Source: an uncultured Rhodocyclaceae bacterium (lineage in GTDB: Bacteria; Pseudomonadota; Gammaproteobacteria; Burkholderiales; Rhodocyclaceae). Taken from it: 64,000 nucleotides of DNA. A program made the translations under genes and the position numbers. Below, piece by piece: positions 35,546 to 48,386 of the stretch. The notes beneath the pieces are model-generated. The model searched no databases. It was not told where the DNA came from and was given only the letters and a program-made list of their open reading frames with translations. Within the stretch, counting starts at the first letter, position 1; each line of letters begins with the position of its first letter. The stretch spans positions 620,001-684,000 of the forward strand of contig OU015322.1 of NCBI GenBank assembly GCA_907163225.1, written 5' to 3'.

Positions 35546-35553
35546 TTAAATTC

Positions 35554-35599
35554 TGGGGCGACTGATGGGGCTCGAACCCACGACAACCGGAATCACAAT
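35554..35599 (-). other. attL: displaced 3' end of tRNA-His
   Basis: 46 bases identical to 48310-48355. They cover the CCA end, T-arm and anticodon stem of tRNA-His, up to the anticodon loop. The 5' half of the tRNA is absent here. This is the classic signature of site-specific integration into a tRNA 3' end. Confidence 0.95.
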
Positions 35600-35727
35600 A
35601 CAATTCCCAGAACTTTACCCCCGCTTACCGGGAGTTACTTATTAAATAAATTTCCTTGATATTCCGCTATTTACGCCTTACTATCAGTCCAGTTGTTAGG
35701 CAACAAATTACTACTTTTTACCGCTCT

Positions 35728-35748
35728 CTGCTTACCATGTGCTTACCA
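35728..35748 (+). repeat. Left 21-bp direct repeat (putative integrase arm sites)
   Basis: Contains GCTTACCA twice, 11 bases apart, and is identical over 21 bases to 48224-48244 at the other end. Further single boxes lie at 35623-35629 (GCTTACC) and, inverted, at 35758-35765 (GTAAGCAG). This is the expected layout for arm-type binding sites of a tyrosine recombinase. Confidence 0.75.
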
Positions 35749-35793
35749 CAGCGAAAAGTAAGCAGAGAAAAACCGGGCAAATGGGGCGTGAAA

Positions 35794-37095
35794 ATGGCGA
35801 AGCTGACCAAGGTCGAAGTCGACAATCTTAAGCCATCCGACAAGGATGCTTTTGTCTGGGCTGATGATCCGAAGGGGTTCGGTGTCAAAGTCTTCACCTC
35901 TGGCGTCAAGAGTTTCGTATTCCAGTACCGGACGAATGAAGGCAAGTCGCGGCGCTACACCATCGGCAAGCTATCCGACACGCTTACCGTCGAACAAGCC
36001 AGAAAGAAGGCGAAAGACCTTTTTCGCGAGGTTCTAGCCGGCAACGACCCGATGGGGCACAAGCAGCAACGCCGGGAAGCCATCACCGTTGAAACCCTGC
36101 TGAATCGTTACGTCGAATCGCCGACTTTTGCTGAAAAGGCCGAAACCACAAAGGCAACCGACAAGGGGCGCATTGAGCGGCACCTGATACCGCTACTCGG
36201 CAACAAGTTCGCCGACCTCCTGACTGCAGACGATGTTCGCCGGGCTCAAAATGCCATCAAGGACGGCAAGACGGCGGGCCGGTTTAAGACCGTTGCGCGG
36301 GGTTTGGCGAAGGTGACGGGTGGCGCCGGGACTGCTGACAAGTCGGTGTTGATACTTCGCGCCGCTTACGCCTGGGCAATTTCTGAAGGCATCCTGAAGG
36401 ATAACCCGGCCGCATCAATCAAAGTGGCCCAGCCTGGCCAGCGCGAAACCATCCTTGGCGGATCGGACGACTACGCCGCTCTATTTCGCACCCTGGCAAA
36501 AATGGAAAACGAACACCGCATCCGGTCAAATGTTGCTGATGCGATTCGACTCATTGCACTGACCGGAGCGAGGCGCGGCGAAGTGGTCGGCCTGCACTGG
36601 CAGTACGTCGACCTCAAGTCAGGATTGATTACCCTGCCCCCCAAGGCCCACAAGACCGGATCGCGCACAGGCAAACCACGCATCATTGGCCTGCCAGCCG
36701 AGGCCCAAACGATTATCGCCAGACAACCCAAGGGCGAACCCGAGGACTACGTTTTCAAGCCATCCAAGGGAGAAGGAACGCTGAACATTGCGAAACCGTG
36801 GATGGATGTCCGCAAAGAGGCGAACTTTCCCGACAATCTCGGGCTCCATGGCCTGCGTCACTCTCTCGCCTCGCATCTAGCCATGGCCGGCGCATCAGCC
36901 GTTGAACTGATGGAAGCGATGGGCCACAAGCAGGTTTCGACCACGCAACGCTATATCCACTTTGCCGAGCGAGCTAGAACCACCCTGGCCGAACGCGCCG
37001 CATCGATCGCCATGGCCGGAATGAATGAAGCCAACGGCAAGAAAAAAGCGGACGTAGTGCCACTGAAGAAACCCAGAAAAAGCAAGTCAGCCTGA
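35794..37095 (+). CDS. int: Tyrosine-recombinase integrase (P4-type)
   Basis: 433 aa from the ATG at 35794, where the family start MAKLTKVEVDNLKPSDKD appears; the frame is open further upstream but that DNA holds the arm sites. An N-terminal DUF4102-like arm-binding domain (VWADDPKGFGVKVF, SRRYTIGKLSDTLTVEQAR) is followed by a core-binding domain and catalytic domain: Arg in LTGARRGEVVGLHW, HGLRHSLASHL (HxxR), the GH motif of MEAMGHKQ, and the nucleophile Tyr in TTQRYIHFAE. It lies next to attL, as usual. Confidence 0.95.
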   Translation: MAKLTKVEVDNLKPSDKDAFVWADDPKGFGVKVFTSGVKSFVFQYRTNEGKSRRYTIGKLSDTLTVEQARKKAKDLFREVLAGNDPMGHKQQRREAITVETLLNRYVESPTFAEKAETTKATDKGRIERHLIPLLGNKFADLLTADDVRRAQNAIKDGKTAGRFKTVARGLAKVTGGAGTADKSVLILRAAYAWAISEGILKDNPAASIKVAQPGQRETILGGSDDYAALFRTLAKMENEHRIRSNVADAIRLIALTGARRGEVVGLHWQYVDLKSGLITLPPKAHKTGSRTGKPRIIGLPAEAQTIIARQPKGEPEDYVFKPSKGEGTLNIAKPWMDVRKEANFPDNLGLHGLRHSLASHLAMAGASAVELMEAMGHKQVSTTQRYIHFAERARTTLAERAASIAMAGMNEANGKKKADVVPLKKPRKSKSA

Positions 37096-37154
37096 CTTCA
37101 GCAACAAATCCAACAATTACTTGATATGCGAAACGCTACGCTATACACTTAACC

Positions 37155-37433
37155 ATGATTAAGAGTTTTCTGCACAAAGGACTTCAAACCTTTTTCGAGA
37201 AAGGCAGCAAAGCCGGTATTCAGCCGCATCATGCAACCCGGTTGTCACGCCAGCTAATCCGCCTCGATATAGCGAAAAGCCCCGACTATATGAACGTGCC
37301 CGGCTGGAAATTTCACGGCCTATCCGGTGATCTGGCCGGGCACTACTCGATAACGGTGAATGGCAACTGGCGTCTGACCTTCACCTTTGAAGATGGCGAC
37401 GCTGTTCTGGTCAATTACCAGGACTACCACTGA
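37155..37433 (+). CDS. higB: HigB-type toxin (RelE superfamily)
   Basis: 92 aa ribosome-dependent mRNA interferase type. Family stretches: MIKSFLHKGLQTFFEKGSK, ATRLSRQLIRLDIA, NVPGWKFHGLSGDLAGHYSI and NWRLTFTFEDGDAVLVNYQDYH. The toxin gene precedes the antitoxin, the typical HigBA order, with a 12-base gap. Confidence 0.92.
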   Translation: MIKSFLHKGLQTFFEKGSKAGIQPHHATRLSRQLIRLDIAKSPDYMNVPGWKFHGLSGDLAGHYSITVNGNWRLTFTFEDGDAVLVNYQDYH

Positions 37434-37445
37434 GAGGTAAAAAAG

Positions 37446-37760
37446 ATGAGCCGAATGTTCAACCCCCCGCATCCCGGCGAGACGCTCCGCGAAGATGTTT
37501 TGCCCGCCCTGAGCCTGACCGTCACCGAAGCGGCTACGCAGCTTGGCGTTACCCGCGCCGCGCTTTCTCGCGTACTGAATGGCCGCGCTGCCATTTCCCC
37601 AACGATGGCGCTGCGGATTGAGGGCTGGCTGGGCGTCGAGAACGGTGGAGGCGCTGACGGATGGCTGGCGCAGCAAACCGCCTATGACCTCTGGCAAGCA
37701 CGGGAGGCCGGGTTACCAAAGGTCAAGCAGGCAACGATACAGAGCAACCCCGCCGCCTGA
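37446..37760 (+). CDS. higA: HigA-type antitoxin (XRE HTH)
   Basis: 104 aa. HigA signature PPHPGETLREDVLPAL, then an HTH (TEAATQLGVTRAALSRVLNG) and MALRIEGWLGVENGG. It neutralises HigB and represses the operon. SD GAGAGG upstream. The pair likely stabilises the element in the host. Confidence 0.93.
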   Translation: MSRMFNPPHPGETLREDVLPALSLTVTEAATQLGVTRAALSRVLNGRAAISPTMALRIEGWLGVENGGGADGWLAQQTAYDLWQAREAGLPKVKQATIQSNPAA

Positions 37761-37838
37761 CGGACTCAGGCAAAGCGCCGGAACAGGATGTTGACGCATC
37801 CCGCCCGGCTAACCAATCATCACTTACGGGAGTGAATC

Positions 37839-38609
37839 ATGGCTGCGGAAAATTCTACGGCAAATCTCAACGGGCTTTTCAAATACCACGAGTATTTGTG
37901 GGGCGATCTTATTTGCGGCACAAAGGGCCAACTCCAAGTCATAGGAATTGGGGTTGGATTGGCCTTCCCTGGTGAGATTGGCGGACCGCAAAAAAAACTC
38001 AACACGGTTGATCCGCGTGGATTCAAGTGCGTAGTTAAACATGCTCGAGGCGAGGCAGACGGTCTCTTCGAAGCATGGATTACATTCCCAGAAAGGGAGC
38101 AATTATTTGGATTTAGCGACTGGGAGCCATTCGCTCCAGGAGTACAGCGCAAGGCAATGTACTGGACTGATGATTTCCTCGGCAGCGCTGATGATTTGGT
38201 GAGCGCCGGGCTAGTGCCAGCCGGATTTTTCCCGGGGCTTCCCGGTATGCGAAAAACCAGGGTTATCATACTTCCCGACGATTCTCTCTTCACGGGATCT
38301 CCAACAGCGAACTATGGCCGGCGCCCTGGCACCAAAAGAGTTGAAAAGGCATCCGGCGGAAAATATCACGTTGAAATCCGTATCCCCCATGATCTAGGTG
38401 AGTTGCGTGCCGAAGAATGTCGGCGGCGCGATGCACAATGGGCGGCGAAAATAATGGCGTTACCTCGCCCGCCGAGAGTTGATGGTCCGCTTCGCGCCAC
38501 ACGGAACCAAGAAGCTACCGCGAGCCGCTCGGCGCTTCGCCTGGTTTGGTCGAAACCTAGTTTTGCTCCGGGCTTCAACAGCCTACCACCCGGGCCATTT
38601 GCCAGATAG
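37839..38609 (+). CDS. Unknown cargo protein (256 aa)
   Basis: Start ATG with GGGAG upstream. No family recognised. The first ~150 residues look like a compact mixed fold (LFKYHEYLWGDLICGTKGQL, VIGIGVGLAFPGEIGGPQKK, GFKCVVKHARGEADGLFEA). The tail (from about residue 190) is basic and low in complexity. No signal peptide or membrane helix. Base composition is lower in GC than the flanking chromosome. Its place between HigBA and the AlpA-like regulator is where P4-like and PICI elements carry accessory genes. Confidence 0.65.
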   Translation: MAAENSTANLNGLFKYHEYLWGDLICGTKGQLQVIGIGVGLAFPGEIGGPQKKLNTVDPRGFKCVVKHARGEADGLFEAWITFPEREQLFGFSDWEPFAPGVQRKAMYWTDDFLGSADDLVSAGLVPAGFFPGLPGMRKTRVIILPDDSLFTGSPTANYGRRPGTKRVEKASGGKYHVEIRIPHDLGELRAEECRRRDAQWAAKIMALPRPPRVDGPLRATRNQEATASRSALRLVWSKPSFAPGFNSLPPGPFAR

Positions 38610-38697
38610 CCTGCTATAGAGGCGCTCGCCACCCTACGCCTGACCATTCAACCGGCCCTGGGTGGCGCCAAGCAAAAGAAGCAAAAGAGGAGAGCTC

Positions 38698-39324
38698 ATG
38701 CAGGATACTGATGCTGAATGGCCGTCCGAGCTTTCGGTTCAACTTCGCCGCCAACTCGAAAAACTTGCTGAAACAGTAGCTCAAGCCAGGTCAATGCAAG
38801 ACACCCTGTTGCACAGCAATATGAAGAAGGACGCAAAGGCCATTGCCACCGCCGCCGCGAAGTTGCTGGAAAAAGTTCGTGACTTTTCAAAAAATTACGA
38901 GGTGGCGAAGTACGAAAATTACCGCACATCGGCCATTGAGACCATCAATGACGACTTTGGCGGATTCAGCGACGATCATCTAAATCGCTGCAGAATGGGC
39001 ATGGACGAATCTTTATTGCAGTGGCCCCTGCTCGGACTTAATAACTACATGCGGGTGCTCGCTGCCATACCCGGCAAAGCGGGCCCACGTAAAGCCAATC
39101 TGGAGCGTTACGCAGTAGAGGAAACCATCAAGATATTCAAGCGCGATGGCCTGCCAATTTCGTCTAGTGAAAATGGCCTATTGTTTCGCGCCTGCCGCGC
39201 CGTGCTAGCGCAATCCGGATTCGTTCCCCGCCGCAGCCGCATCATCGCCAAGCGCGGCGACGACCCCGATATAGACGAAGCGTTGAAGCATTACATACGT
39301 CAAATCAATGGTGCGAAAACCTAG
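38698..39324 (+). CDS. Unknown helical cargo protein (208 aa)
   Basis: ATG at 38698 chosen for the strong AGAGGAGA site; an earlier in-frame start at 38662 lacks one. Predicted mostly helical, with coiled-coil-like N-terminal segments (LRRQLEKLAETVAQARSMQD, AAAKLLEKVRDFSKNYE) and a basic C-terminal part (FVPRRSRIIAKRGDD). No known domain recognised. Second of the two unknown genes after HigBA. Confidence 0.65.
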   Translation: MQDTDAEWPSELSVQLRRQLEKLAETVAQARSMQDTLLHSNMKKDAKAIATAAAKLLEKVRDFSKNYEVAKYENYRTSAIETINDDFGGFSDDHLNRCRMGMDESLLQWPLLGLNNYMRVLAAIPGKAGPRKANLERYAVEETIKIFKRDGLPISSSENGLLFRACRAVLAQSGFVPRRSRIIAKRGDDPDIDEALKHYIRQINGAKT

Positions 39325-39414
39325 CTAAAACCGGGCAGATTATCGCCGTGACGCGCTACCTGTCGTTTCCTAAACTCGCTGCATGCCTACTTTCTAAGGC
39401 GGAATGGAGCGATC

Positions 39415-39630
39415 ATGGAAAAACACTTTTTAAGTCGCGAAGAAGCGGCGCAGTACCTTACTGAACGCGGCCTGAAAACCGCCAAGGGCACCCTGCAAAA
39501 ATGGGTGACCACCGGAGGCGGCCCGGCATACCGCCGCTTCGGCAAGCGCGCCGTCTACCTGGTAGAAGATCTGAACGAATGGGCCGAGCGCAAACTGACC
39601 GCCCCTCGCCTTTCTTCGTCGGGGGTATGA
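39415..39630 (+). CDS. AlpA/excisionase-like HTH regulator
   Basis: 71 aa with a MerR/AlpA-type helix-turn-helix (LSREEAAQYLTERGLKTAKG) and wing (PAYRRFGKRAVYLVEDLNEW). Such proteins activate integrase or direct excision in P4-like elements and PICIs. GGAATGGAG precedes the ATG. It starts the second half of the element, just before the replication genes. Confidence 0.82.
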   Translation: MEKHFLSREEAAQYLTERGLKTAKGTLQKWVTTGGGPAYRRFGKRAVYLVEDLNEWAERKLTAPRLSSSGV

Positions 39631-39631
39631 C

Positions 39632-40042
39632 ATGGCCGGCCCCCAAGAACAAGCATACGACTCGATCTCCGAAATCGAGCGAAACCGCCTCGATGGTCTT
39701 CCTGCCCACGGATTTTTAGATATCGATGCGCTGGCCACATTGGCGTGCAATAACCTACCGGCGCGATCTTCTGCCGATGGCCGTGTTGTTACTTGGTACG
39801 AAATCTGTAGACGGGCAGCGGCCGCCATAAAAGACGATTCCACGTATGACAAATACGTGCTCGCTACCAGCGCTGAAAGCCGTCTCTACGATCAGAACGA
39901 CCCGTTATTTGTTGCGCTGTTGGTTCTGATGAAAATGCAGGGTAAGTGTTCGTGGATCAGTGACATAGACCTGCTCCTTGGCTACATCGACGCTAAGAAG
40001 TGGCCCCGTGCAGTTGGACAGAAATTCGGTTTTCTTAGGTGA
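39632..40042 (+). CDS. Unknown element gene, 3' end altered by IS3 insertion
   Basis: 136 aa as read now, from an ATG with GGGGG upstream. Stretches: DSISEIERNRLDGLPAHGFL, VVTWYEICRRAAAAIKDDST and SDIDLLLGYIDAKKWPRAV. The last ~9 codons (GQKFGFLR and stop) fall inside the left end of the IS3 element, so the natural C-terminus is lost. On the far side of the IS one frame runs about 22 codons to a TGA that overlaps the ATG of the next gene, a plausible original ending. Function unknown. Confidence 0.6.
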   Translation: MAGPQEQAYDSISEIERNRLDGLPAHGFLDIDALATLACNNLPARSSADGRVVTWYEICRRAAAAIKDDSTYDKYVLATSAESRLYDQNDPLFVALLVLMKMQGKCSWISDIDLLLGYIDAKKWPRAVGQKFGFLR

Positions 40043-40054
40043 TTTCTCTGCGGG

Positions 40055-40882
40055 TTAAGCCGCTGCGGCGAGCAGCGACGGGTTGAAGTAAGCCGTATCC
40101 GGGGTTAGCCCGTCAAGGGATGAATGCGGACGACGCCGATTGTAAAAATCGAAATAGCGAGCCAGTGCCTGCCTGACCTCGGAAACGGTTTCGTAGCCGT
40201 GCAGATATATTTCTTCGTACTTGACCGATTTCCAGAGGCGCTCAACGAAGACGTTATCCCGCCAACAACCTTTGCCATCCATGCTGACCTGAATCCTGAG
40301 CTCCTGAAGCAAGCCAATGAAGGCGGAGCTGGTGAATTGGCTGCCTTGGTCTGTGTTCATGATTTCCGGCTTGCCGTATTTCATGATGGCCTCTTCCAGC
40401 GCATCGACACAGGGATCGGCGGTCAGGCTGTTTGACAGGCGCCACGCCAGCACCCGGCGAGTGGCCCAGTCGAGCACGGCGCTCAGATAGACGAAGCCCC
40501 GGCGCATTGGAATGTAGGTGGTATCCATCGCCCAGACCTGGTTCGGACGGTCGATGCTGAGATTCCGCAGCAGATAGGGATAAATGCGGTGTGCCTGGTT
40601 GCGCCGGCTGGTGTTGGCTTTGCGGTAGATGGCCTGGATGTCGAGCTTCTTCATCAGCGTGCCGACATGCTTGCGACCGATCTCATGTCCTTCCAGCTTG
40701 AGCATGTCACGCAGCATCCGCGCCCCGGCGAAGGGATGCTCCAGGTGCAGTTCATCGATTCGCCGCATCAGCCGCAGGTCAACTTCGGGCGTTGGTTGCG
40801 GCAGGTAATAGACGGAGGAGCGAGAGAGTTCCAGCAATTGCGCCTGCCGCACGACAGGCAACTCGTGGTTCTTGTCGATCAT
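40055..40882 (-). CDS. IS3-family transposase OrfB (DDE domain)
   Basis: 275 aa from the ATG in [15 protein letters not shown]. rve-type integrase core: first Asp in [14 protein letters not shown], second in [11 protein letters not shown], Glu in [20 protein letters not shown]_21-like region upstream ([20 protein letters not shown]). The frame is open back to 41053 and overlaps OrfA, as required for a frameshift fusion protein. Confidence 0.93.
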
Positions 40883-41181
40883 CGTTTTGCGCTCGCATCG
40901 CCGATGCGACCGAGCGCGACGGCCAAAAAATCGATTTCCAGCGCCTGCTGGCCAATCTTTGCGTGCAAGTCTTTCAGATCTGGCGTTGCTGACTGCTTCT
41001 CGGCAGCCGTGGCGAAGACGCCGGAGGCGTTCTCCAGCAGTTGCGTCTTCCACTGGGTAATCTGGTTCGGATGAACATCAAACTTCTCCGCTAACGCGGC
41101 CAGCGTCTCATCGCCCTTGAGGGCGGCGATCGCCACTTTCGCCTTGAAGGTGGCTGTGTGGTTACGGCGGGGTCTTCTCAT
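40879..41181 (-). CDS. IS3-family transposase OrfA (HTH)
   Basis: 100 aa. HTH of the transposase_8 type: [47 protein letters not shown] string (minus strand, 40930-40924) lies in the overlap with OrfB and is a plausible -1 slippage site that would produce OrfAB. Confidence 0.92.
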
Positions 41182-41312
41182 TGCTTCTGCTCCTTGGCAG
41201 GCGATTTACATCGCCCATTGAAGCAGAGAATTCACTTAACCGGATGTCCGGATTCGCGGAGCCACTTCTCTATTCGTCACCGGCAAAAGCGGGATGTTCT
41301 GCAGGATTGGCA

Positions 41313-42959
41313 ATGACCAACGTTACCAATCTGGAAAAAGCCTCCGCCAAGCTGGCCGGCAAAGACAGGAAGAGCAACGCACCCGACGGCGCTACCTACG
41401 ACGCCAATGGAAAACGCGTCATTCGCCACATACCCGGCGAACTACCGAGCATTCTGGATCAAGTCGAAACGGCCCTGAGCGAATCACCCGAGCAAAACGT
41501 CTACCGCTACGCCGGCCGGCTCGCCCGTGTCTATCAGGCCGAGGAGCCGGCCGACAAGAGTGTCAAGCGTCCGGCTGGGGCGATCATGGTGCACCCGGTC
41601 GAGTCGCCGCTACTAGCCGAGCTCGCGGGCCGCGCCGCAATCCACGAGAAGTTCGACGCCAGGTCATCGTCATACAAACCTTGCGACTGCCCTCGCCGCG
41701 TCGCCGATGCACTTCTGTCTCGTGGGCATTGGCCACAACTCCCCGACCTCGCTGGCTTCATTGAGGCGCCGACAATCACCGACGACAACCGCGTCATTGA
41801 CGAGCCGGGCTACGATCCCGGCAGCGGTTTGTTCTGCGCCTTCGCCGCGATCCCCGGCTATGAAGCGCCGCCAGCGAAGCCGACCAAGGATGATGCCAAG
41901 CGAGCCGCCGGCAAGCTGGTTGATCTGGTCGCCAGCTTCCCGTTCGTCGATGCCACGGACCGCGCCGCGATCCTGGCCGGCATCCTGACCGCATTGCAGC
42001 GCCGCCTGCTTCCCGCCGCCCCTCTGGTCGCGATCACCGCGCCGACGCCAGGAACCGGCAAAACCTTGCTGTGTGAAATGCTGGCGATCATCGCCACGGC
42101 TCGCCGGGCTAGCGTCCTTTCTCTGGGCCACGACGACGCCGAAACTGAGAAGCGCCTGGCGGGTGTCTTCCTTGCCGGTGATGCGGTCATCTCGGTCGAC
42201 AACATCGAGCGCCCGCTGAAGGGCGATCTGCTGTGTCAGGTGGCGACGCAGCAATTCGTTCGACTGCGCCCGCTTGGCGGGTCCGGGATGCTCAACGTAC
42301 CAACGCATTCGCTACTCGTGGCTACTGGCAACAACCTGGCCATCGTCGGCGATTTGAAGCGCCGGGTCATCATGGTTCGCCTTGACGCCAAGACCGAGCG
42401 CCCCGAGCATCGTGCATTCGACAATGACTTTTTGAAAGACATTGCCGCCCGCCGGGGCCTGATCATCACCTGGGGCCTGACCATCGTTTCCGCGTATCTT
42501 GCGGCCGGATCGCCGAGGATCGCCGGCCTGCACGGCTTTGGCGGATTCGAGCAATGGGATCACATGGTCAGGCGGCCGCTGGTCTGGCTCGACTTCCCCG
42601 ACCCTCTCCTGACCTCAGAGGAGTTACGGGAGCAAGACCCCGACCTCGAAGCCACGCGCCTGCTCCTAGCTGCTTGGTACGAACTGTTCAAAGCAACGCG
42701 ACAGACGGCCGCCGATGTGGTCGCCGCCGGTATGCAGGCATCACCGATGGGCTTCGATAAAGTGAACCCAGACCTCTATGATGCTTTGCAACTGGTGTGC
42801 AGCGAGAAGCCCAACGCCCGCAGACTTGGCTACTGGCTACGCGCCCACCGTGACCGCATTGTAGGCGGACTGGTATTGAAACATGCCGGCGCTGAAGGTC
42901 GTACCAAGACTGTCCGCTGGTTAGTAACTGCTGCGGGTGATGCGGGTCATTGCGGGTGA
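41313..42959 (+). CDS. Element primase/helicase-type ATPase
   Basis: 548 aa from the ATG at 41313 (AGGA upstream). The central part holds a P-loop (APTPGTGKTLLCEMLAIIAT), a Walker-B-like stretch (AGDAVISVDNIERP) and a sensor region (HSLLVATGNNLAIVGDLKRR), as in phage and plasmid primase-associated helicases. The N-terminal half resembles no catalytic primase motif I can point to. The last residues (GDAGHCG) are encoded by the left arm of the iteron-like inverted repeat. Likely the element's replication initiator/helicase. Confidence 0.75.
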   Translation: MTNVTNLEKASAKLAGKDRKSNAPDGATYDANGKRVIRHIPGELPSILDQVETALSESPEQNVYRYAGRLARVYQAEEPADKSVKRPAGAIMVHPVESPLLAELAGRAAIHEKFDARSSSYKPCDCPRRVADALLSRGHWPQLPDLAGFIEAPTITDDNRVIDEPGYDPGSGLFCAFAAIPGYEAPPAKPTKDDAKRAAGKLVDLVASFPFVDATDRAAILAGILTALQRRLLPAAPLVAITAPTPGTGKTLLCEMLAIIATARRASVLSLGHDDAETEKRLAGVFLAGDAVISVDNIERPLKGDLLCQVATQQFVRLRPLGGSGMLNVPTHSLLVATGNNLAIVGDLKRRVIMVRLDAKTERPEHRAFDNDFLKDIAARRGLIITWGLTIVSAYLAAGSPRIAGLHGFGGFEQWDHMVRRPLVWLDFPDPLLTSEELREQDPDLEATRLLLAAWYELFKATRQTAADVVAAGMQASPMGFDKVNPDLYDALQLVCSEKPNARRLGYWLRAHRDRIVGGLVLKHAGAEGRTKTVRWLVTAAGDAGHCG

Positions 42960-43043
42960 TCTTCTCTTGGACGTGAAAAAGTGTCAGAGACAAAAATTAT
43001 AAATGGGCCGAAAAGTTACCCGCAATGACCCGCATCACCCGCA
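42932..43043. other. Candidate replication origin: iterons in a perfect 26-bp inverted repeat
   Basis: Left arm 42932-42957 holds three tandem TGCGGGT units about 9-10 bases apart. The right arm 43018-43043 is its exact reverse complement. The 60-base centre is AT-rich in part (GACAAAAATTATAAATGGG). It immediately follows, and partly lies in, the end of the replication ATPase gene. Iterons beside an initiator gene are typical of P4-like and plasmid origins. It could also be a transcription terminator or operator. Confidence 0.6.
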
Positions 43044-43150
43044 AGCGGGGGCCCCTGTATGTTCGGGCGCACAAGGGTATCGCTGAGCTCGTGCCGCGTG
43101 TAAGTAGTTGATTTTAAAGTAAATGAACAGATGACATTGACCGTGACAAG

Positions 43151-43690
43151 ATGACAGACACGCACAACTCTCAGGAAAAAATTCCGGAATCCGGGCGCTT
43201 GTCACTTCCGTTTGACCCTGCCGATCTGGCTCAAGGCATCCGGGTACGACCTGCGCAATTTGCCCGGATGTGCAACGTCAGCCGGCAAACAGCCAGCCAG
43301 TGGGTCAAGCGCGGCTTGGTTCAGCTCTTTCCTGACGGTACGCTTGATCCGGCGCAAGCGGCGAAGCGGGTAATTCAGAACACCGACCCCGCCAGGCTAC
43401 GGGCTCGCATCTTCTCTGATTTAACGAAAACGGTCGACGACTGGAAACGCGAGGCGAAGGCTGCCAAGGCGGAACTGCTGCAAGCCAAGGAGCGTATCCA
43501 GTACCTGGAAGGCCGCCTGCGTGAAGATGAGCTGATCGAGAAACTGTTCCTGGTGGAACTGGAGGCGGCTGCCTCCGAGATCGCAGCCGCCGCTCCCGAT
43601 ACCGTTCCCGGCTTGCTGGAGAAAATTCTGGACGATTGCATTACTCGAGCGGGTGAACAACTTCAAGCCGCCGGTCAGTCGCCATCATAG
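43151..43690 (+). CDS. Nu1-like DNA-binding protein (possible small terminase)
   Basis: 179 aa. HTH in the first third (FARMCNVSRQTASQWVKRG), a wing-like segment (LFPDGTLDPAQAAKRV) and a long coiled coil (WKREAKAAKAELLQAKERIQ). This is the layout of lambda Nu1-type small terminase subunits. No large terminase is found beside it, so its role is inferred. It could instead regulate the origin directly upstream. Confidence 0.6.
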   Translation: MTDTHNSQEKIPESGRLSLPFDPADLAQGIRVRPAQFARMCNVSRQTASQWVKRGLVQLFPDGTLDPAQAAKRVIQNTDPARLRARIFSDLTKTVDDWKREAKAAKAELLQAKERIQYLEGRLREDELIEKLFLVELEAAASEIAAAAPDTVPGLLEKILDDCITRAGEQLQAAGQSPS

Positions 43691-43902
43691 CGGCCGGCAA
43701 TGCCGGCATCCGGCTCTGGCGCGGAGTGATCGTGGAACCAGTCGTTCGATCAACTTGAGCCTAACCCCCCCGGCGCCTGACGACACCCGAAAGGGAGGGG
43801 GGAGCACCGCCCAAAGCCAATCAATCCGCTTGAAATCCACCCACAGGCGGAGAAATTCCACGAAACCCAGAATTAGCGGGTCACTCAACGAGAGGCCTAC
43901 TG

Positions 43903-44121
43903 ATGAACCTTCCCAACCTCATTCCGGATGTTGACCAGACCCCCTTAGGTCTGTGTCGGCTGTCATCTGCTGCCAACCTGGCAAAACTTTCCCCCGAGCT
44001 GTTCGAACAGGGAATCGAAGACGGCGCCATTCCTTTGGAATTGATCCGCATCGGCAAACGCTTCAAGTACGTGCGTTCGACCGACCTTGCCGCCTGGCTG
44101 TCTGGCAAACCTACCCGCTGA
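43903..44121 (+). CDS. Small HTH/excisionase-like protein
   Basis: 72 aa. Residues 22-70 (LSSAANLAKLSPELFEQGIE, IPLELIRIGKRFKYVRSTDL, AAWLSG) look like a short MerR/excisionase-type HTH with a wing. It lies 18 bases before the capsid gene, so it is likely co-expressed with it. The 212 bases upstream carry no gene I can support. Confidence 0.6.
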   Translation: MNLPNLIPDVDQTPLGLCRLSSAANLAKLSPELFEQGIEDGAIPLELIRIGKRFKYVRSTDLAAWLSGKPTR

Positions 44122-44139
44122 TTTTTGGAGAACTGAACC

Positions 44140-45126
44140 ATGAACGATATTTTTGGCAGCGACCTGTTTACCGCCGAATCCCTGACCGCCGCAATCAATA
44201 AGGCCCCCTACGTGCCCGGCCAGATCGCAGCCCTGAAACTCTTCGCTGAGCGCGGCATTGCCACGACCAAGGCGGCCATCGAACTCAAGAACAACACACT
44301 GACCCTGGTTCCCAATATCGGGCGCGGCGCACCGGCGCCGGTATTCACCCCCGGCAAACGCGAAGGCGTGAGCTTTGAATGCGCCCACCTGATCCAGCGC
44401 TCGACCCTGTTGGCCGACTCCATTCAGGATGTGCGCGAGTTTGGCAGCACGGAGCTGAAATCCCTGGAAACCTCGCTGAACGACGATCACCTGATGCCGA
44501 TGCGCCAGAATATCGAAGCCACCATCGAATATCACCGTGTTGGCGCCATCAAGGGGCAGATTCTCGACGCCTCCGGCGCCGTGCTGATCGATCTGTTCAG
44601 TGAATTCGGAGTTTCCCAGCAGACGACCGATTTCGAACTGGATGTGTCGACCGTCAAGGTACAGGCCAAGGTAATGGCCGCCAAACGGCTGGCTGAAGAT
44701 GCCCTGGGTGCCCTCAAGCCGACCGGCTGGATCGCGCTGTGCTCCCCTGGCTTCCTGGACGCCATGATGGGCCATTCTTCCGTCGAAAACTTCGCCGCCG
44801 GCTGGACAGCAGCCAGCATGTTGCGCGACGACGTGCGCGATTCGGTGAATATCGGCGGCGTCCAATTCACCGAGTATCGCGGGCGCTACAACGGCACTGA
44901 CTTCATTCCGGCCGGCGAGGCCTACCTGGTTCCCGTGGGCGTGCCGGGCCTGTTCATCACCCGTTTTGCACCGGCCGATTATGCTGAGGCGGTCAATACC
45001 GAAGGGTTGCCGATTTACTCGAAATCGCACCTGCTGCCGTTCAACCGGGGCGCGATGCTGGAAGCCCAGTCGAACCCGGTCAACCTCTGCACGCTGCCGC
45101 GTACGGTCATCAAACTGACCGCCTGA
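44140..45126 (+). CDS. Major capsid protein (lambda gpE family)
   Basis: 328 aa with TTTTTGGAG upstream. gpE-family features: N-terminal ALKLFAERGIATTKAAIELK, NTLTLVPNIGRGAPAPVF, the central FELDVSTVKVQAKVMAAKRL, and the C-terminal FITRFAPADYAEAVNTEGLP with YSKSHLLPFNRGAMLEAQSN. It would form the icosahedral shell. Its TGA stop is the first unit of the 7-bp tandem repeat. No decoration protein or portal gene is adjacent. Confidence 0.92.
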   Translation: MNDIFGSDLFTAESLTAAINKAPYVPGQIAALKLFAERGIATTKAAIELKNNTLTLVPNIGRGAPAPVFTPGKREGVSFECAHLIQRSTLLADSIQDVREFGSTELKSLETSLNDDHLMPMRQNIEATIEYHRVGAIKGQILDASGAVLIDLFSEFGVSQQTTDFELDVSTVKVQAKVMAAKRLAEDALGALKPTGWIALCSPGFLDAMMGHSSVENFAAGWTAASMLRDDVRDSVNIGGVQFTEYRGRYNGTDFIPAGEAYLVPVGVPGLFITRFAPADYAEAVNTEGLPIYSKSHLLPFNRGAMLEAQSNPVNLCTLPRTVIKLTA

Positions 45127-45312
45127 TGGTTGATGGTTGATGGTTGATGGTTGATGGTTGATGGTTGATGGTTGATGGTTGATGGTTGATGGTTGATGGT
45201 TGATGGTTGATGGCTGATGGTTGATGGTTGATGGCTGATGGCTGATGGCTGATGGCTGATGGCTGATGGCTGATGGCTGATGGCTGATGGCTGATGGCTG
45301 ATGGCTGATGGC
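45124..45312 (+). repeat. 27 x 7-bp tandem repeat (TGATGGT / TGATGGC)
   Basis: Exactly 27 head-to-tail heptamers. Order: twelve TGATGGT, one TGATGGC, two TGATGGT, twelve TGATGGC. The first unit contains the capsid stop codon. It ends 53 bases before the protease ATG. Such perfect repeats are prone to slippage, so copy number probably varies between isolates. It is not a CRISPR: there are no spacers. Confidence 0.98.
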
Positions 45313-45365
45313 GCTGCGACCGGCTCAACCGTGAGCCGGTTCCCTTCCTCCCCTGGAGAATTTCA

Positions 45366-46319
45366 ATGAAAAAACACTGGTTCGAGCTGAAGGCCGGCGC
45401 TGAACAGCCGGCGGAAATCAGCATTTACGATGACATTGGCGCCTATGGCGTTTCGGCCAAGGATTTCATCGCGGCCCTGAACGGTATTACCGCGCCGGTC
45501 ATTCACCTGAGCATCAATTCACCGGGCGGCGCCGTGTTCGACGCCCTGGCGATGTACAACGCCTTGCGGCAGCACCCGGCAGAGATCCTGGTCGACGTGA
45601 TGGGCGTTGCTGCGTCTGCAGCGTCCCTGGTGGCCATGGCCGGCGACAAGATTATGATGCCGGAGAACGCCTTCATGATGATTCACAATCCGTGGAGCGT
45701 AGCTACCGGAAATGCCGCAGACCTGCGTGAGCTGGCCGACACCATGGACAAGATCGGCGAATCACTGACGTCGATCTACAGCAACCGTAGCGGGCAGTCG
45801 GCCGACAAGATCAAGACCCTGCTCGACGCCGAAACCTGGCTATCGGCGCAGGAAGCAGTCGACTTGGGCTTTGCCGACGAAATCAGCGCAACCATGCCGA
45901 TAGCGGCTCGCTTCGATCTGGAACGAATGCCCGATGCAGTGCGGGCGATCTGGGGCAAGACATCATCGGTGCCGATCCCGCCGGAAGCGGCACCGACTAC
46001 CCTGACCGGCCGGATCAAGGCTATCGAGAATGCCCTGGTCGATTTCGCCAAGGCCCGTGGCGTTTCGCTGTCCCCCAAGGTGCCCCTGCAGCCCACTGAA
46101 TACGCACTCAATGCGGCGGCGATCTGCGAGGCGGCCAAGCTCCCCGATCTGATTGATACGGTCATCGAATCGAAGGTGCCGCTGGCTGTTTTACGTCAGA
46201 TGCTGCAGAACTATCGCGCCTCAAGTGATCTGGCCATTGAGGTCAGCAACATCCTTCCCCAGTCGGGCAACGGCAGCATGGCCAGCCAGATTTGGGCGCA
46301 GCGCCAGGGGCAGGCATGA
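45366..46319 (+). CDS. ClpP-like prohead (head maturation) protease
   Basis: 317 aa. S14-type protease fold: IHLSINSPGGAVFDALAMYN, nucleophile Ser in VMGVAASAASLVAMAG and catalytic His in AFMMIHNPWSVATG. The C-terminal ~120 residues form an extra domain, possibly scaffold. It would process capsid precursors during head assembly. CTGGAG precedes the ATG. The protease follows the capsid gene here, whereas in lambda the protease comes first. Confidence 0.9.
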   Translation: MKKHWFELKAGAEQPAEISIYDDIGAYGVSAKDFIAALNGITAPVIHLSINSPGGAVFDALAMYNALRQHPAEILVDVMGVAASAASLVAMAGDKIMMPENAFMMIHNPWSVATGNAADLRELADTMDKIGESLTSIYSNRSGQSADKIKTLLDAETWLSAQEAVDLGFADEISATMPIAARFDLERMPDAVRAIWGKTSSVPIPPEAAPTTLTGRIKAIENALVDFAKARGVSLSPKVPLQPTEYALNAAAICEAAKLPDLIDTVIESKVPLAVLRQMLQNYRASSDLAIEVSNILPQSGNGSMASQIWAQRQGQA

Positions 46320-46693
46320 ACGCCGATAAGCTGCTGATGCTCCTGGACAAGCACCGGGACCGGCAGGCAGCCTATCGGCTGCTGACCGCGCGTTATCGCG
46401 GAGCCGCCAAGGAGGTGGCAAAGATCGAGGCCGGTCTGACCGCCGAGGTCGAGGATTTGGCCGAAAGCATCGTCACCATGCCGACCGAGGCGCTGGCTCG
46501 GGTGACGCCGGAAGAGCTCGCCGCAGCCGGCATTTCCGATGCCCATCACAAGCGCCTGCTGGCGGCCCGGCGTCTGGCTGAGCGCCTGCGCCTTGAGACC
46601 GAGGCGCAGGCCGACGAACTCAAGCAGAGCCAGGCCTTGACCGAGCGCCTGGTGGAATACGCCAGCCAGCGCGGCGAACTGGTGCATCTGTGA
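46316..46693 (+). CDS. Unknown helical protein after protease (125 aa)
   Basis: The ATG overlaps the protease stop (ATGA). Highly charged and helical, with likely coiled coils (KEVAKIEAGLTAEVEDLAES, RLAERLRLETEAQADELKQS). No recognised family. Position after the protease suggests a head-completion or scaffold role, but this is inference only. Confidence 0.65.
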   Translation: MNADKLLMLLDKHRDRQAAYRLLTARYRGAAKEVAKIEAGLTAEVEDLAESIVTMPTEALARVTPEELAAAGISDAHHKRLLAARRLAERLRLETEAQADELKQSQALTERLVEYASQRGELVHL

Positions 46694-47199
46694 GGAACGA
46701 CATGGAAAAGATCAATCAACTGCGTGTGCAGATCGCCGGTTTGAAGGCCGAACGGCTGACCATCCTACGCCAGGGACGTAACCGGGAGGAGGTGCGGGGC
46801 TGCATCGATGCCTGGCTATCGGCTGCCGAGCAGCAGGGCCGCGATGCGCTGCAGATCGCCTGCGAGCGCGCCCTGGCTGGGCAAGCCTTCACCCCCTGCC
46901 ATGTCCATGGCAATGCGGCCGTATTTGAAGCACCCGGCGCGGCGCCGCTTTCGCTGGATATGGGGCCGCTGCTGCTTGCCATCCTGGGCAAGAGCGCCGT
47001 CAAGAAAGCACTGAGCGGCATGGTCGATGCGCTGCCGGAGGGTTTGTCACCCCAAGATAAGGTGAAGCGCCTGAAAACTATCGAGGATGAACTTTACAGC
47101 CTGGAGGTAGCAGAAGAGGCGGCAATCGTCGATGCTGAGCTGGCCGGAGAAAGCGTCCTGCGCCGGCCTGATGCCCGCCCGGAGATCATCCTGGCGTAA
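46690..47199 (+). CDS. Unknown protein with coiled coil (169 aa)
   Basis: GTG start overlapping the previous stop (GTGA); an ATG at 46702 is an alternative. An N-terminal helical segment (INQLRVQIAGLKAERLTILR), a middle hydrophobic part (LSLDMGPLLLAILGKSAVKK) and a C-terminal acidic helix (LKTIEDELYSLEVAEEAAIV). The arrangement hints at a virion or assembly protein. No family recognised. Confidence 0.62.
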   Translation: MRNDMEKINQLRVQIAGLKAERLTILRQGRNREEVRGCIDAWLSAAEQQGRDALQIACERALAGQAFTPCHVHGNAAVFEAPGAAPLSLDMGPLLLAILGKSAVKKALSGMVDALPEGLSPQDKVKRLKTIEDELYSLEVAEEAAIVDAELAGESVLRRPDARPEIILA

Positions 47200-47206
47200 C
47201 CCGTTC

Positions 47207-47274
47207 GCTACGGTCAGACTCTCACAACCGCGAGGCCGGGGACATGTCCAATGTCGGCATAGTCTGACCGTAGC
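47207..47274. other. Long hairpin region in the element
   Basis: GCTACGGTCAGACT (47207-47220) and its exact reverse complement (47261-47274) enclose 40 bases with a GACATGTC palindrome. A related CCGCGAGGCC-GGGG string occurs inside the loop and again about 80 bases later. It lies in a 219-base gene-free gap. It could end the head-gene transcript or be a recognition site for packaging or regulation. Confidence 0.45.
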
Positions 47275-47418
47275 CCCTTCAAGCCGTCATCAGTTTCCGG
47301 TATCCGCGAGGCCCGGGGGTTACCAGACCTTCACCGACTGATGGCGGCCACTCATTCGCTGCCAGACGCTTAAAAATGCCCACAGGCAGCGCGTTGAGCC
47401 GTCTTGCAGCATGGCGGC

Positions 47419-47883
47419 ATGCAAACGATGTTCCTCAAGATCAGCGACGCCATCGGACCACTTCCTGCCATGGTGTTTTGTGCGTTTGCATCAGCCAAGA
47501 AAACATTTTATGTACCCGAAAGCTATATCCCGGGCCACGTGCTTGAGCGGCTGCTTGGCGAGGATGCTTTCCTGGGCATGATCGCCAATTTTGGCGGTGA
47601 GACGATCATGGCCCCCGGCATGCGCCTGGATGAGGTTCGAAACCTTGGCATTGTCTATACCTTGACCAAGCGCGGCCTGAGTGCGCAGGAAATCGAAAGC
47701 CAGACAGGGCTGCAATATCGAAATATCAAGCTGTTGCAGCAGCGAATCAAGAGCGATCGGCCGTTGACCGAATTGGCGGCAGCCAGCTTGAAGCCGAGCA
47801 GCCGCTTAGCGATCAATGGGCAAATTTCAGGCAAAACAGCCGTTATCGATTTGACATCCAAGTTGGCAACACCCATGCTTTGA
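47419..47883 (+). CDS. Mor/C-type transcription activator-like protein
   Basis: 154 aa from the ATG at 47419 (an ATG at 47428 is also possible). The middle has the Mor pattern: YIPGHVLERLLGEDAFLGMI, NFGGETIMAPGMRLDEV, then an HTH (TKRGLSAQEIESQTGLQYRN IKLLQQRI). Mor and C of phage Mu activate middle and late promoters. In this element it may control the head genes, though it lies after them. Confidence 0.65.
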   Translation: MQTMFLKISDAIGPLPAMVFCAFASAKKTFYVPESYIPGHVLERLLGEDAFLGMIANFGGETIMAPGMRLDEVRNLGIVYTLTKRGLSAQEIESQTGLQYRNIKLLQQRIKSDRPLTELAAASLKPSSRLAINGQISGKTAVIDLTSKLATPML

Positions 47884-47909
47884 TTGTTGGCATCTGCAAA
47901 GGATTCGTC

Positions 47910-48068
47910 GTGAAACTGCTTCGTTTTGGCTGGTTGTGCTGGCTGATTGCAGCGATGCTTTTCTTCTCTGGGACGAAAGGCACCGGATGGCTGATTTTGC
48001 TATTCGTGATCGCCGGATTCGGCGTCAGTCTGGCCGTGGCAAGCCGGACCATGCGTTCAAATCCATGA
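47910..48068 (+). CDS. Small two-helix membrane protein
   Basis: 52 aa from a GTG at 47910 with AAAGGA 6 bases upstream. Two hydrophobic segments (FGWLCWLIAAMLFFSG and GWLILLFVIAGFGVSLAVA) separated by TKGT. Function unknown. Its stop overlaps the next small gene (ATGA). Confidence 0.55.
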   Translation: MKLLRFGWLCWLIAAMLFFSGTKGTGWLILLFVIAGFGVSLAVASRTMRSNP

Positions 48069-48187
48069 AAATCGTTCTTGCCACCATAACGGTGCTACCT
48101 GCACTGTTCAGCAACCCGCTCGGGGCTGTATTGGCCATCCCGGTCGTATGGGCAATCCTTTGGATCGTCGACGGCATATTGTCATGA
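48065..48187 (+). CDS. Small membrane protein (40 aa)
   Basis: Begins at an ATG overlapping the previous stop. The product is largely hydrophobic (IVLATITVLPALFSNPLGAV, IPVVWAILWIVDGILS), as a small membrane or toxin-like peptide would be. Last coding sequence before attR. Function unknown. Confidence 0.5.
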   Translation: MKIVLATITVLPALFSNPLGAVLAIPVVWAILWIVDGILS

Positions 48188-48223
48188 TGTGCATCGTCTG
48201 GCGTCACCACCAATAGGCGCCCC

Positions 48224-48244
48224 CTGCTTACCATGTGCTTACCA
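48224..48244 (+). repeat. Right 21-bp direct repeat (putative integrase arm sites)
   Basis: Identical over 21 bases to 35728-35748, again with two GCTTACCA boxes 11 bases apart. It lies 66 bases inside attR. Confidence 0.75.
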
Positions 48245-48257
48245 GAAATCCAGAAAG

Positions 48258-48284
48258 CAAAAAGGCCATCCGTTTTGATGGCCT
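48258..48284 (-). terminator. Element-supplied terminator for tRNA-His
   Basis: AGGCCATC / GATGGCCT stem with a 6-base loop and five Ts after it on the minus strand. It lies just beyond the CCA end of tRNA-His, inside the element, so it replaces the host terminator left at 35518. Confidence 0.8.
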
Positions 48285-48309
48285 AATTACTTGTTTCTTC
48301 AATGTTTTT

Positions 48310-48355
48310 TGGGGCGACTGATGGGGCTCGAACCCACGACAACCGGAATCACAAT
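48310..48355 (-). other. attR core (identical to attL)
   Basis: The 46-bp match to 35554-35599, forming the 3' part of the functional tRNA-His. Identity stops at the anticodon loop on one side and one base beyond the CCA end on the other. Confidence 0.95.
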
Positions 48356-48386
48356 CCGGGACTCTACCAACTGAGCTACAGCCGCC
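48310..48386 (-). tRNA. tRNA-His (anticodon GTG), rebuilt at attR
   Basis: 77 bases including the extra 5' G(-1), which pairs with C73 as required for histidine tRNA, and CCA. The anticodon arm has ATTGTGATT (anticodon GTG) and the T-arm GGGTTCGAGCCCC. The 3' 46 bases come from the element and keep the tRNA intact. Confidence 0.97.

What the first reader, a model, noticed from the sequence alone, without database searches (positions are those of the whole stretch)
35554..48355. Capsid-encoding satellite-like element without portal, large terminase or tail genes
A 12.8-kb element with its own integrase, AlpA-like regulator, replication ATPase and candidate origin encodes a gpE-type capsid protein and a ClpP-like prohead protease plus a Nu1-like protein. 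I see no portal, large terminase, tail or lysis gene. Capsid-forming phage-inducible chromosomal islands are known to carry head genes and borrow tails, but those usually keep portal and terminase. This may be a more reduced form, or a deleted prophage. The unusual capsid-before-protease order and the Mor-like gene at the end are further departures.
Basis: partly seen in the sequence, partly recalled or inferred. Interest (0 to 1): 0.72.

Follow-up and report, generated by a model that had tools for sequence, protein, structure and literature searches.

The report
Phage satellite with its own capsid
This is a small parasitic DNA element that probably lives off a bacterial virus and carries the virus shell gene and shell-processing enzyme, but not the DNA doorway, DNA pump or tail; its closest relatives carry different single pieces of the virus assembly line instead.

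Summary
A 12.8-kb element is bounded by a 49-nt duplication of the tRNA-His 3' end; related genomes show the empty site. It encodes an integrase, HigBA-like pair, HTH regulator, replication ATPase with an inverted-repeat origin candidate, TerS/Nu1-like protein, gpE capsid, ClpP-type prohead protease, small unknowns and a Mor-like regulator. No portal, large terminase, tail or lysis gene was found. It reads better as a satellite than as a decayed prophage. Fourteen relatives share the replication gene (>=50% identity); 6 of the 10 tested have tRNA-derived att repeats (9.1-14.1 kb). None shows a complete virion kit in the stretches examined. Each carries a part: capsid (6 of 15, window included), large terminase (4), neck/tail-completion protein (7), or none seen (1); capsid and large terminase never co-occur. 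An independent 13.1-kb element with another replication gene also has gpE capsid then protease, without portal or terminase found. Most likely the satellite builds heads from its own shell protein around a helper's portal, terminase and tail. No experiment supports this, no helper of this type is resident, and an IS lies just before the replication gene, where no primase was found. New variant of a known kind.

The parts
35551..35599 (.). attachment-site copy (3' end of tRNA-His duplicated)
   Evidence: 49-nt direct repeat with 48307-48355, 98%; 46 nt exact
48307..48355 (.). attachment-site copy inside tRNA-His 48310-48385 (-)
   Evidence: tRNA-His next to a pepD homologue without insert in 11 of 29 other loci
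35722..35748 (.). short direct repeat just inside the left end (TGCTTACCA twice), possible integrase arm site
   Evidence: 93% match to 48218-48244; role inferred
48218..48244 (.). partner of the repeat at 35722-35748, just inside the right end
   Evidence: role inferred
35656..37095 (+). tyrosine integrase (start codon uncertain)
   Evidence: PF00589 2.6e-20, PF13356 2.2e-18 from residue 50
37155..37433 (+). HigB-like toxin
   Evidence: PF05015 5.6e-21; 88% homologue in L069
37446..37760 (+). HigA-like antitoxin
   Evidence: HTH_3 1.4e-7; 89% homologue in L069
37839..38609 (+). backbone protein, unknown
   Evidence: 64% homologue at the same place in L068; no Pfam match above cut-off, no PADLOC match
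38662..39324 (+). backbone protein, unknown
   Evidence: 39% homologue at the same place in L068
   Evidence: PF12728 8.5e-8
39996..41269 (-). IS3-type insertion element (two transposase frames); orf39632 runs into it
   Evidence: inverted repeats 39996-40020/41245-41269, 76%; rve and HTH_Tnp_1 domains; IS3 name by general knowledge
41313..42959 (+). replication ATPase (rep), marker of the family
   Evidence: phrog_29234 1.9e-114; 50-70% identity to the 12 relatives aligned; start codon
42932..43043 (.). probable replication origin: inverted TGCGGGT units, 26-nt arms, 60-nt loop
   Evidence: similar layout after rep in 12 of 13 relatives; role inferred
43151..43690 (+). TerS/Nu1-like packaging-specificity protein
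   Evidence: phrog_57 5.9e-10; homologues in L068, L163, L075, L108
43903..44121 (+). small HTH-like protein
   Evidence: weak PrtN/excisionase matches; 35% match over 62 aa in L068
44140..45126 (+). major capsid protein, gpE type, full length
   Evidence: PF03864 7e-82, phrog_29 9.5e-54
45123..45311 (+). 27 copies of a 7-bp unit between capsid and protease; no other match of three units in the genome
45366..46319 (+). ClpP-type prohead protease
   Evidence: PF00574 1.1e-35; phrog_133 1.2e-76
46316..46693 (+). small protein, unknown (pair with orf46690)
   Evidence: no significant family; weak counterpart by position in L038
46690..47199 (+). small coiled-coil-like protein, unknown, shared with three other elements
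   Evidence: alignment with L038, L068, L109; model pLDDT 86 from 4 sequences, no significant fold match
47404..47883 (+). Mor-like late transcription activator
   Evidence: phrog_836 2.7e-5; 39% match in L068 (holds a stop there) and 31% beside the terminase of gpE prophage L039

Best explanation
It is an integrated phage satellite. Shown by sequence: it sits in tRNA-His, has its own integrase and replication ATPase, and carries a capsid protein and prohead protease while no portal, large terminase, tail or lysis gene was found. Inferred: when a helper phage (none of this type is resident) reaches late expression, the element excises, replicates from the inverted-repeat origin behind rep, and makes its own gpE shell protein and protease. 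These assemble heads on the helper's portal; the Nu1-like protein directs the helper's large terminase to satellite DNA; helper tails and lysis complete the particle. Supplying the shell protein itself would let the satellite set head size and starve the helper. Relatives take over a different step: terminase, or neck/tail completion.
For: att repeat and empty site. Complete capsid and protease domains. Nine frames of 200 aa or more, none a portal or large terminase. Of 14 rep relatives (>=50%) none shows a complete head or tail module in the stretches examined; 6 of 10 tested for repeats have tRNA-derived ones, 9.1-14.1 kb. Origin-like repeats in 12 of 13. Rep homologues below 50% identity include phages with portals (L143, L147, L154). 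Independent element L038, 13.1 kb at tRNA-Met, has gpE capsid then protease, gpD and tape measure, no portal or large terminase found. Precedent: SaPIbov5 Ccm, a capsid homologue that alone redirects helper head size (PMC8569155, passages).
Against: No excision, induction or particle was observed. No gpA-type TerL (phrog_15) or lambda-type portal (PF05136) at E<=0.001 in the host genome, so no resident helper of this kind. No decoration protein recognised. No primase found in the element (best match of a confirmed relative primase E 0.12), while 4 of 5 relatives tested have one before rep; an IS sits there. TerS and Mor calls rest on weak profile scores. The capsid-protease block as such was seen in no other rep relative.
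Confidence: 0.66

Rival explanations
1. Decayed prophage: a lambda-like prophage lost terminase, portal and tail genes by deletion, and the IS is part of that decay.
For: An IS sits in the element and no primase was found. Capsid, protease and Mor have relatives in a gpE prophage with terminase and portal, L039 (49%, 51%, 31%). No resident helper of this type.
Against: Clear att repeats and full-length capsid and protease. Fourteen relatives with the same rep, 12 of 13 tested with a similar repeat behind it, are also incomplete, in different ways. The protease lies on the other side of the capsid from its place in 18 of 18 phage and prophage loci where it was detectable; one simple deletion would not give that.
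Confidence: 0.17
2. Interference element: the capsid and protease do not build satellite heads but poison helper assembly, protecting the host, while the element itself moves in otherwise helper-made particles.
For: Other family members carry single virion proteins (gpZ-like, baseplate hub, capsid) that could act as decoys. A satellite with a capsid homologue strongly suppresses its helper (PMC8569155, passages).
Against: A protease and a TerS-like protein beside the capsid suggest assembly and packaging rather than poisoning. Not exclusive with the best explanation. No PADLOC family hit in 7 of 7 window proteins scanned.
Confidence: 0.13
3. The element is a reduced capsid-forming PICI, descended from a cf-PICI that lost portal and terminase.
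For: Same general plan: integrase, small HTH regulator, replication gene, head genes.
Against: Rep relatives carry unrelated virion modules (HK97-type, ClpP-fusion or gpE capsids; or terminase; or neck), intermixed on the rep tree, and no full head-and-packaging kit was seen in them. cf-PICIs are described as encoding all head and packaging components (PMC10690885, passages).
Confidence: 0.04

Closest known systems
Capsid-forming PICIs (cf-PICIs)
   Same: Small integrated satellite with its own capsid protein and head protease; tails must come from a helper.
   Different: cf-PICIs also encode portal, connectors, both terminase subunits and HNH nuclease (PMC10690885, passages); here only capsid, protease and a TerS-like protein were found.
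Phage-inducible chromosomal islands of proteobacteria (PICIs)
   Same: Integrase, small HTH regulator, replication gene, similar size (PICI average 9.5 kb, cf-PICI 14 kb, PMC10803314, passages).
   Different: Classical PICIs lack a major capsid and prohead protease (recalled); the abstract of PMC13376191 says satellites lack structural genes (search listing). No induction shown here.
SaPIbov5 Ccm (cos-type SaPIs)
   Same: A satellite-encoded homologue of a phage capsid protein.
   Different: Ccm is an HK97-like protein that cannot build shells alone (PMC8569155, passages); here a full gpE-type protein comes with its own protease, in an unrelated element and host.
lambda-like gpE phages and prophages (L039, Pseudomonas phage vB_Pae_U8, Curvibacter phage PCA1)
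   Same: Capsid 44-49% identical; protease 46-51% identical over 172-195 aa in PCA1 and L039.
   Different: Those have protease, then decoration, then capsid, with terminase and portal upstream in L039 and U8; here capsid precedes protease and the rest is absent.

Membership tests
Phage satellite (general) | Integrated element with own integrase and att sites | tested here: met
Phage satellite (general) | Lacks genes needed for a complete virion | tested here: met
Phage satellite (general) | Mobilised by a helper phage | not testable with these tools
   no helper known; no lambda-type portal or gpA-type TerL in the genome
PICI (proteobacterial) | AlpA-family regulator before the replication genes | tested here: inconclusive
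   small HTH_17 protein at the expected place, no AlpA family match at E<=0.1
PICI (proteobacterial) | Primase-replicase present | tested here: inconclusive
   rep ATPase present; no primase found, IS just before rep
PICI (proteobacterial) | No structural genes other than packaging or redirection genes (recalled) | tested here: not met
   major capsid and prohead protease
cf-PICI | Own major capsid protein and head protease | tested here: met
cf-PICI | Own portal, connectors and both terminase subunits | tested here: not met
   no portal or TerL found; only a weak TerS-like protein
P4-like satellite | P4 core genes (psu, sid, delta, alpha; recalled) | not tested
   no specific search; none named among the Pfam/PHROG matches shown
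rep-defined satellite family described here | rep >=50% identical, inverted GCGGG-type repeat behind it, att-bounded small size, partial virion module | tested here: met
   the definition was drawn from the same set

The most novel reading that the evidence does not exclude
One lineage of satellites keeps a fixed replication gene and origin and swaps in interchangeable single-step virion modules, so that each satellite seizes a different step of a helper's assembly line: shell and protease, terminase, or neck/tail completion. The window element is the gpE-shell version, making a hybrid head of satellite shell on a helper portal.
Probability: 0.5. Interest if true: 0.78.

Novelty: new variant of a known kind. 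Interest (0 to 1): 0.66.

Why it matters
Known satellites are described mainly as remodelling helper capsids with small factors or, as cf-PICIs, bringing a whole head and packaging kit. A family whose members each bring one replaceable step would show that phage assembly lines can be taken over piece by piece, and gives a natural set to ask which virion parts are compatible between phages. It also extends satellites with capsid genes to Rhodocyclaceae, where seven searches of the held library listed no such report.

Tried and rejected
Searches that led nowhere: capsid scan of genome contigs (44 stretches matched, none confirmed); Nu1-like and orf46690 in the phage collection (no match); orf46690 alignments and the Nu1 alignment in viral contigs (none confirmed); fold search of the orf46690 model (no match at E<=0.001; best in the PDB a prefoldin at 0.033).

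Considered and dropped: that rep is cut by the IS. Its start aligns with relatives; the frame that runs into the IS is orf39632. That the small viral contigs are excised circles: no terminal repeat in 5 of 5 tested. That L046, L047, L054 or L057 are further gpE satellites: their frames were only looked at; L054 looks Mu-like by eye, the others stay unclassified.

Results against my reading: L142 (49% rep) falls inside the satellite part of the tree beside L078, although it shows ParB-like genes and its contig is 21 kb, so it may not be a satellite. The deep fork is open (85/97) and the tree is midpoint-rooted; the rows L150 and L153 were labelled phage by me without a portal confirmed by profile. 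L078 runs to its contig end and L079, L080, L081 and L141 are whole short contigs, so missing genes there prove little; the firm statements rest on the 7 rep-family elements with tRNA att repeats, plus L038. L068 had a 14-nt and L076 a 20-nt and a 12-nt repeat, L078 none, and L109 a 29-nt repeat where no tRNA was detected. L163 has rep, Nu1-like protein and an IS transposase but no virion gene or primase recognised. The L038 protease also matches phrog_21, named portal (3.2e-22), at profile positions 557-845; the portal of L143 matches that profile at 8-538, so I read phrog_21 as a portal-protease fusion and the L038 match as its protease part. The Mor-like gene of L068 holds a stop codon. In 3 of the 11 empty-site loci the tRNA-His match is only 79%. 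No shuffled control was run for the origin repeats of relatives. Of the 35 other gpE places, 19 were fetched and examined.

Full report
The element. A direct repeat of 49 nt with one mismatch flanks the region, 35551-35599 and 48307-48355, 12,756 bp apart. The right copy lies in tRNA-His 48310-48385. In genome G666 a pepD homologue, 92% identical to the gene left of the element, starts about 42 bp from tRNA-His; in 11 of 29 other same-genus loci listed, G666 included, the two lie next to each other without an insert. So the element is a discrete insertion. The genome is one contig of 3.46 Mb.

Gene content. Integrase, HigBA-like pair, two backbone proteins shared with a relative, a small HTH protein, an IS3-type insertion, a replication ATPase, a TerS/Nu1-like protein, a small HTH-like protein, a full-length gpE capsid, a ClpP-type prohead protease, two small unknowns, a Mor-like protein. 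Nine frames of 200 aa or more exist in the element: integrase, orf37839, orf38662, IS transposase, rep, capsid, protease and two antisense frames. The two unnamed ones, 256 and 220 aa, are short for a portal or large terminase.

Order. In lambda-like relatives the order is terminase, portal, protease, decoration, capsid. I tested 24 gpE loci: 19 of the 35 other places listed, four phage or viral records, and L038. A protease was detectable in 19 of 24; it lay upstream of the capsid in 18 and downstream only in L038. The window has it downstream. A portal was detectable in 17 of 24, with one portal query.

L038. This locus, in another family of the same class, was found through orf46690 (matches in 2 of 369 genomes: the window's own and G576). 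It has a 48-nt tRNA-Met repeat, 13,094 bp apart, an integrase and a DnaB helicase, counterparts of orf46316 and orf46690 before the capsid, gpE capsid, S49-type protease (by position and phrog_53), gpD-like protein and tape measure. No portal or large terminase was found there. It has no detectable copy of the window's rep, so a similar reduced head set sits beside a different replication system.

The rep family. Searching with rep gave 8 of 60 relatives, 23 of 297 family genomes, 4 of 399 order genomes at E<=1e-100, 6 named contigs and 3 then 20 viral contigs, three shared. I took as one family the 15 loci at 50% identity or more, duplicates merged: the window, L068, L069, L075-L081, L107-L109, L141, L163. 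Weaker matches were set aside, except six used in the tree. Virion genes by PHROG (L081's capsid fusion by near-identity of layout to L080): capsid in the window, L075, L080, L081, L107, L108 (6 of 15); large terminase in L069, L078, L079, L109 (4 of 15); neck or tail-completion protein in L068, L076, L077, L078, L079, L109, L141 (7 of 15); none seen in L163. Capsid and large terminase share no element (0 of 15), nor capsid and neck protein (0 of 15; chance of no overlap 0.017 by simple counting, uncorrected, truncated contigs included). No separate portal turned up among the proteins scanned; not every small frame was scanned. Three capsid types occur: gpE, HK97-type (alone or fused to a protease) and ClpP-capsid fusions.

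Firmness. tRNA-derived repeats bound 7 of the 11 rep-family loci tested: window 12.8 kb, L069 11.2, L075 10.2, L077 12.1, L107 14.1, L108 9.1, L163 10.2 (L069 and L075 also show a whole tRNA-Gly copy, which would add about 0.2 kb). In these, frames of 300 aa or more were listed and were assigned to integrase, rep, primase, capsid, terminase, tape measure, baseplate hub, regulator or transposase, apart from a 309-aa protein of L069 without a convincing family and frames antisense to known genes.

Origin. Behind rep, inverted copies of GCGGG-containing units occur in the window and in 12 of 13 relatives, with 53-100 nt between the best arms in 12 of these 13 and 162 in L081; none was found in L077, and L141 was not tested. 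Recurrence across elements with different cargo supports an origin role; that is inference.

Tree. The rep tree (21 rows, 10 of 18 inner branches starred) separates L143, L147, L150, L153 and L154 from the rest, with cargo types intermixed among the satellites. Portals were confirmed by profile in L143, L147 and L154. L142 falls inside with L078 and is unclear. The simplest reading is a satellite lineage that exchanges virion modules.

A shared small protein. A family of 124-259 aa proteins links L038 and L167 with the rep-family loci L069, L080, L081, L107, L108 and L109 (best pair across the two groups E 6e-12, several pairs weak). It lies near the capsid or terminase. The window lacks it (no match). 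It hints that the two satellite groups exchange genes.

State of this copy. A primase before rep was confirmed by profile in L068, L069, L077 and L079 and not in L163. The window has none detectable (best match of those four tested as query, plus L076, L141, L163 and two small frames of L075: E 0.12 for a confirmed primase, 0.013 for an unverified frame; L077 itself was not used) and an IS lies there. This copy may depend on another primase or be disabled. Between capsid and protease lies an array of 27 copies of a 7-bp unit, with no other match of three units in the genome; no function is shown.

Mechanism. The best reading is a satellite making its own shell and protease and borrowing portal, large terminase, tail and lysis, with the Nu1-like protein steering packaging and the Mor-like protein tying late genes to a helper. 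Only the anatomy is shown. No helper of lambda type is resident: 0 matches to PF05136 and to phrog_15, while these searches rang in 3 and 4 of 14 control genomes.

Literature. cf-PICIs are described as encoding all head and packaging parts (PMC10690885, passages); satellite sizes and families in PMC10803314 (passages) and PMC11389934 (passages); Ccm in PMC8569155 (passages); PMC12846349 was opened for passages and added nothing. Seven paper searches listed no report of a satellite family of this make-up; I saw only the top of long lists, the held library lacks most subscription papers, and the main satellite survey (PMC10085698) was not held.

Noticed in passing
window 45123-45311: 27 tandem copies of a 7-bp unit (TTGATGG/CTGATGG) start at the capsid stop codon and fill most of the gap before the protease; each unit holds a stop and a start triplet; no other match of three units in the genome.
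   Followed up: partly
window 37155-37760: HigBA-like toxin-antitoxin pair just inside the integrase, 88-89% identical to the pair in the otherwise different element L069; likely recent exchange.
   Followed up: partly
L038 3816-6311 and L107 14204-16390: Both elements carry a full-length tape measure protein without other tail genes recognised; a satellite-set tail length is conceivable.
   Followed up: no
G667:C80, G669:C78, G690:C177: Extra partial tRNA-His copies: about 1.4 and 5 kb from the main match in G667 and G669, and two copies 4.1 kb apart on another contig in G690; other islands may use this site.
   Followed up: no
L167 (G408 contig of 6.5 kb): Integrase, small HTH-like frame, a member of the shared small-protein family and an orf46690-like protein near the contig end; probably another element of this kind, cut off.
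   Followed up: partly
L080 6354-7001, L081 5982-6533, L069 13623-14027, L108 8963-9337 (-), L107 12095-12502, L038 10559-11107 (-), L167 1548-2042 (-), L109 4479-5258 (-): A small protein family recurs near the capsid or terminase in both satellite groups; no PHROG match in the three scanned (L069, L080, L107). A possible hallmark of these satellites.
   Followed up: partly
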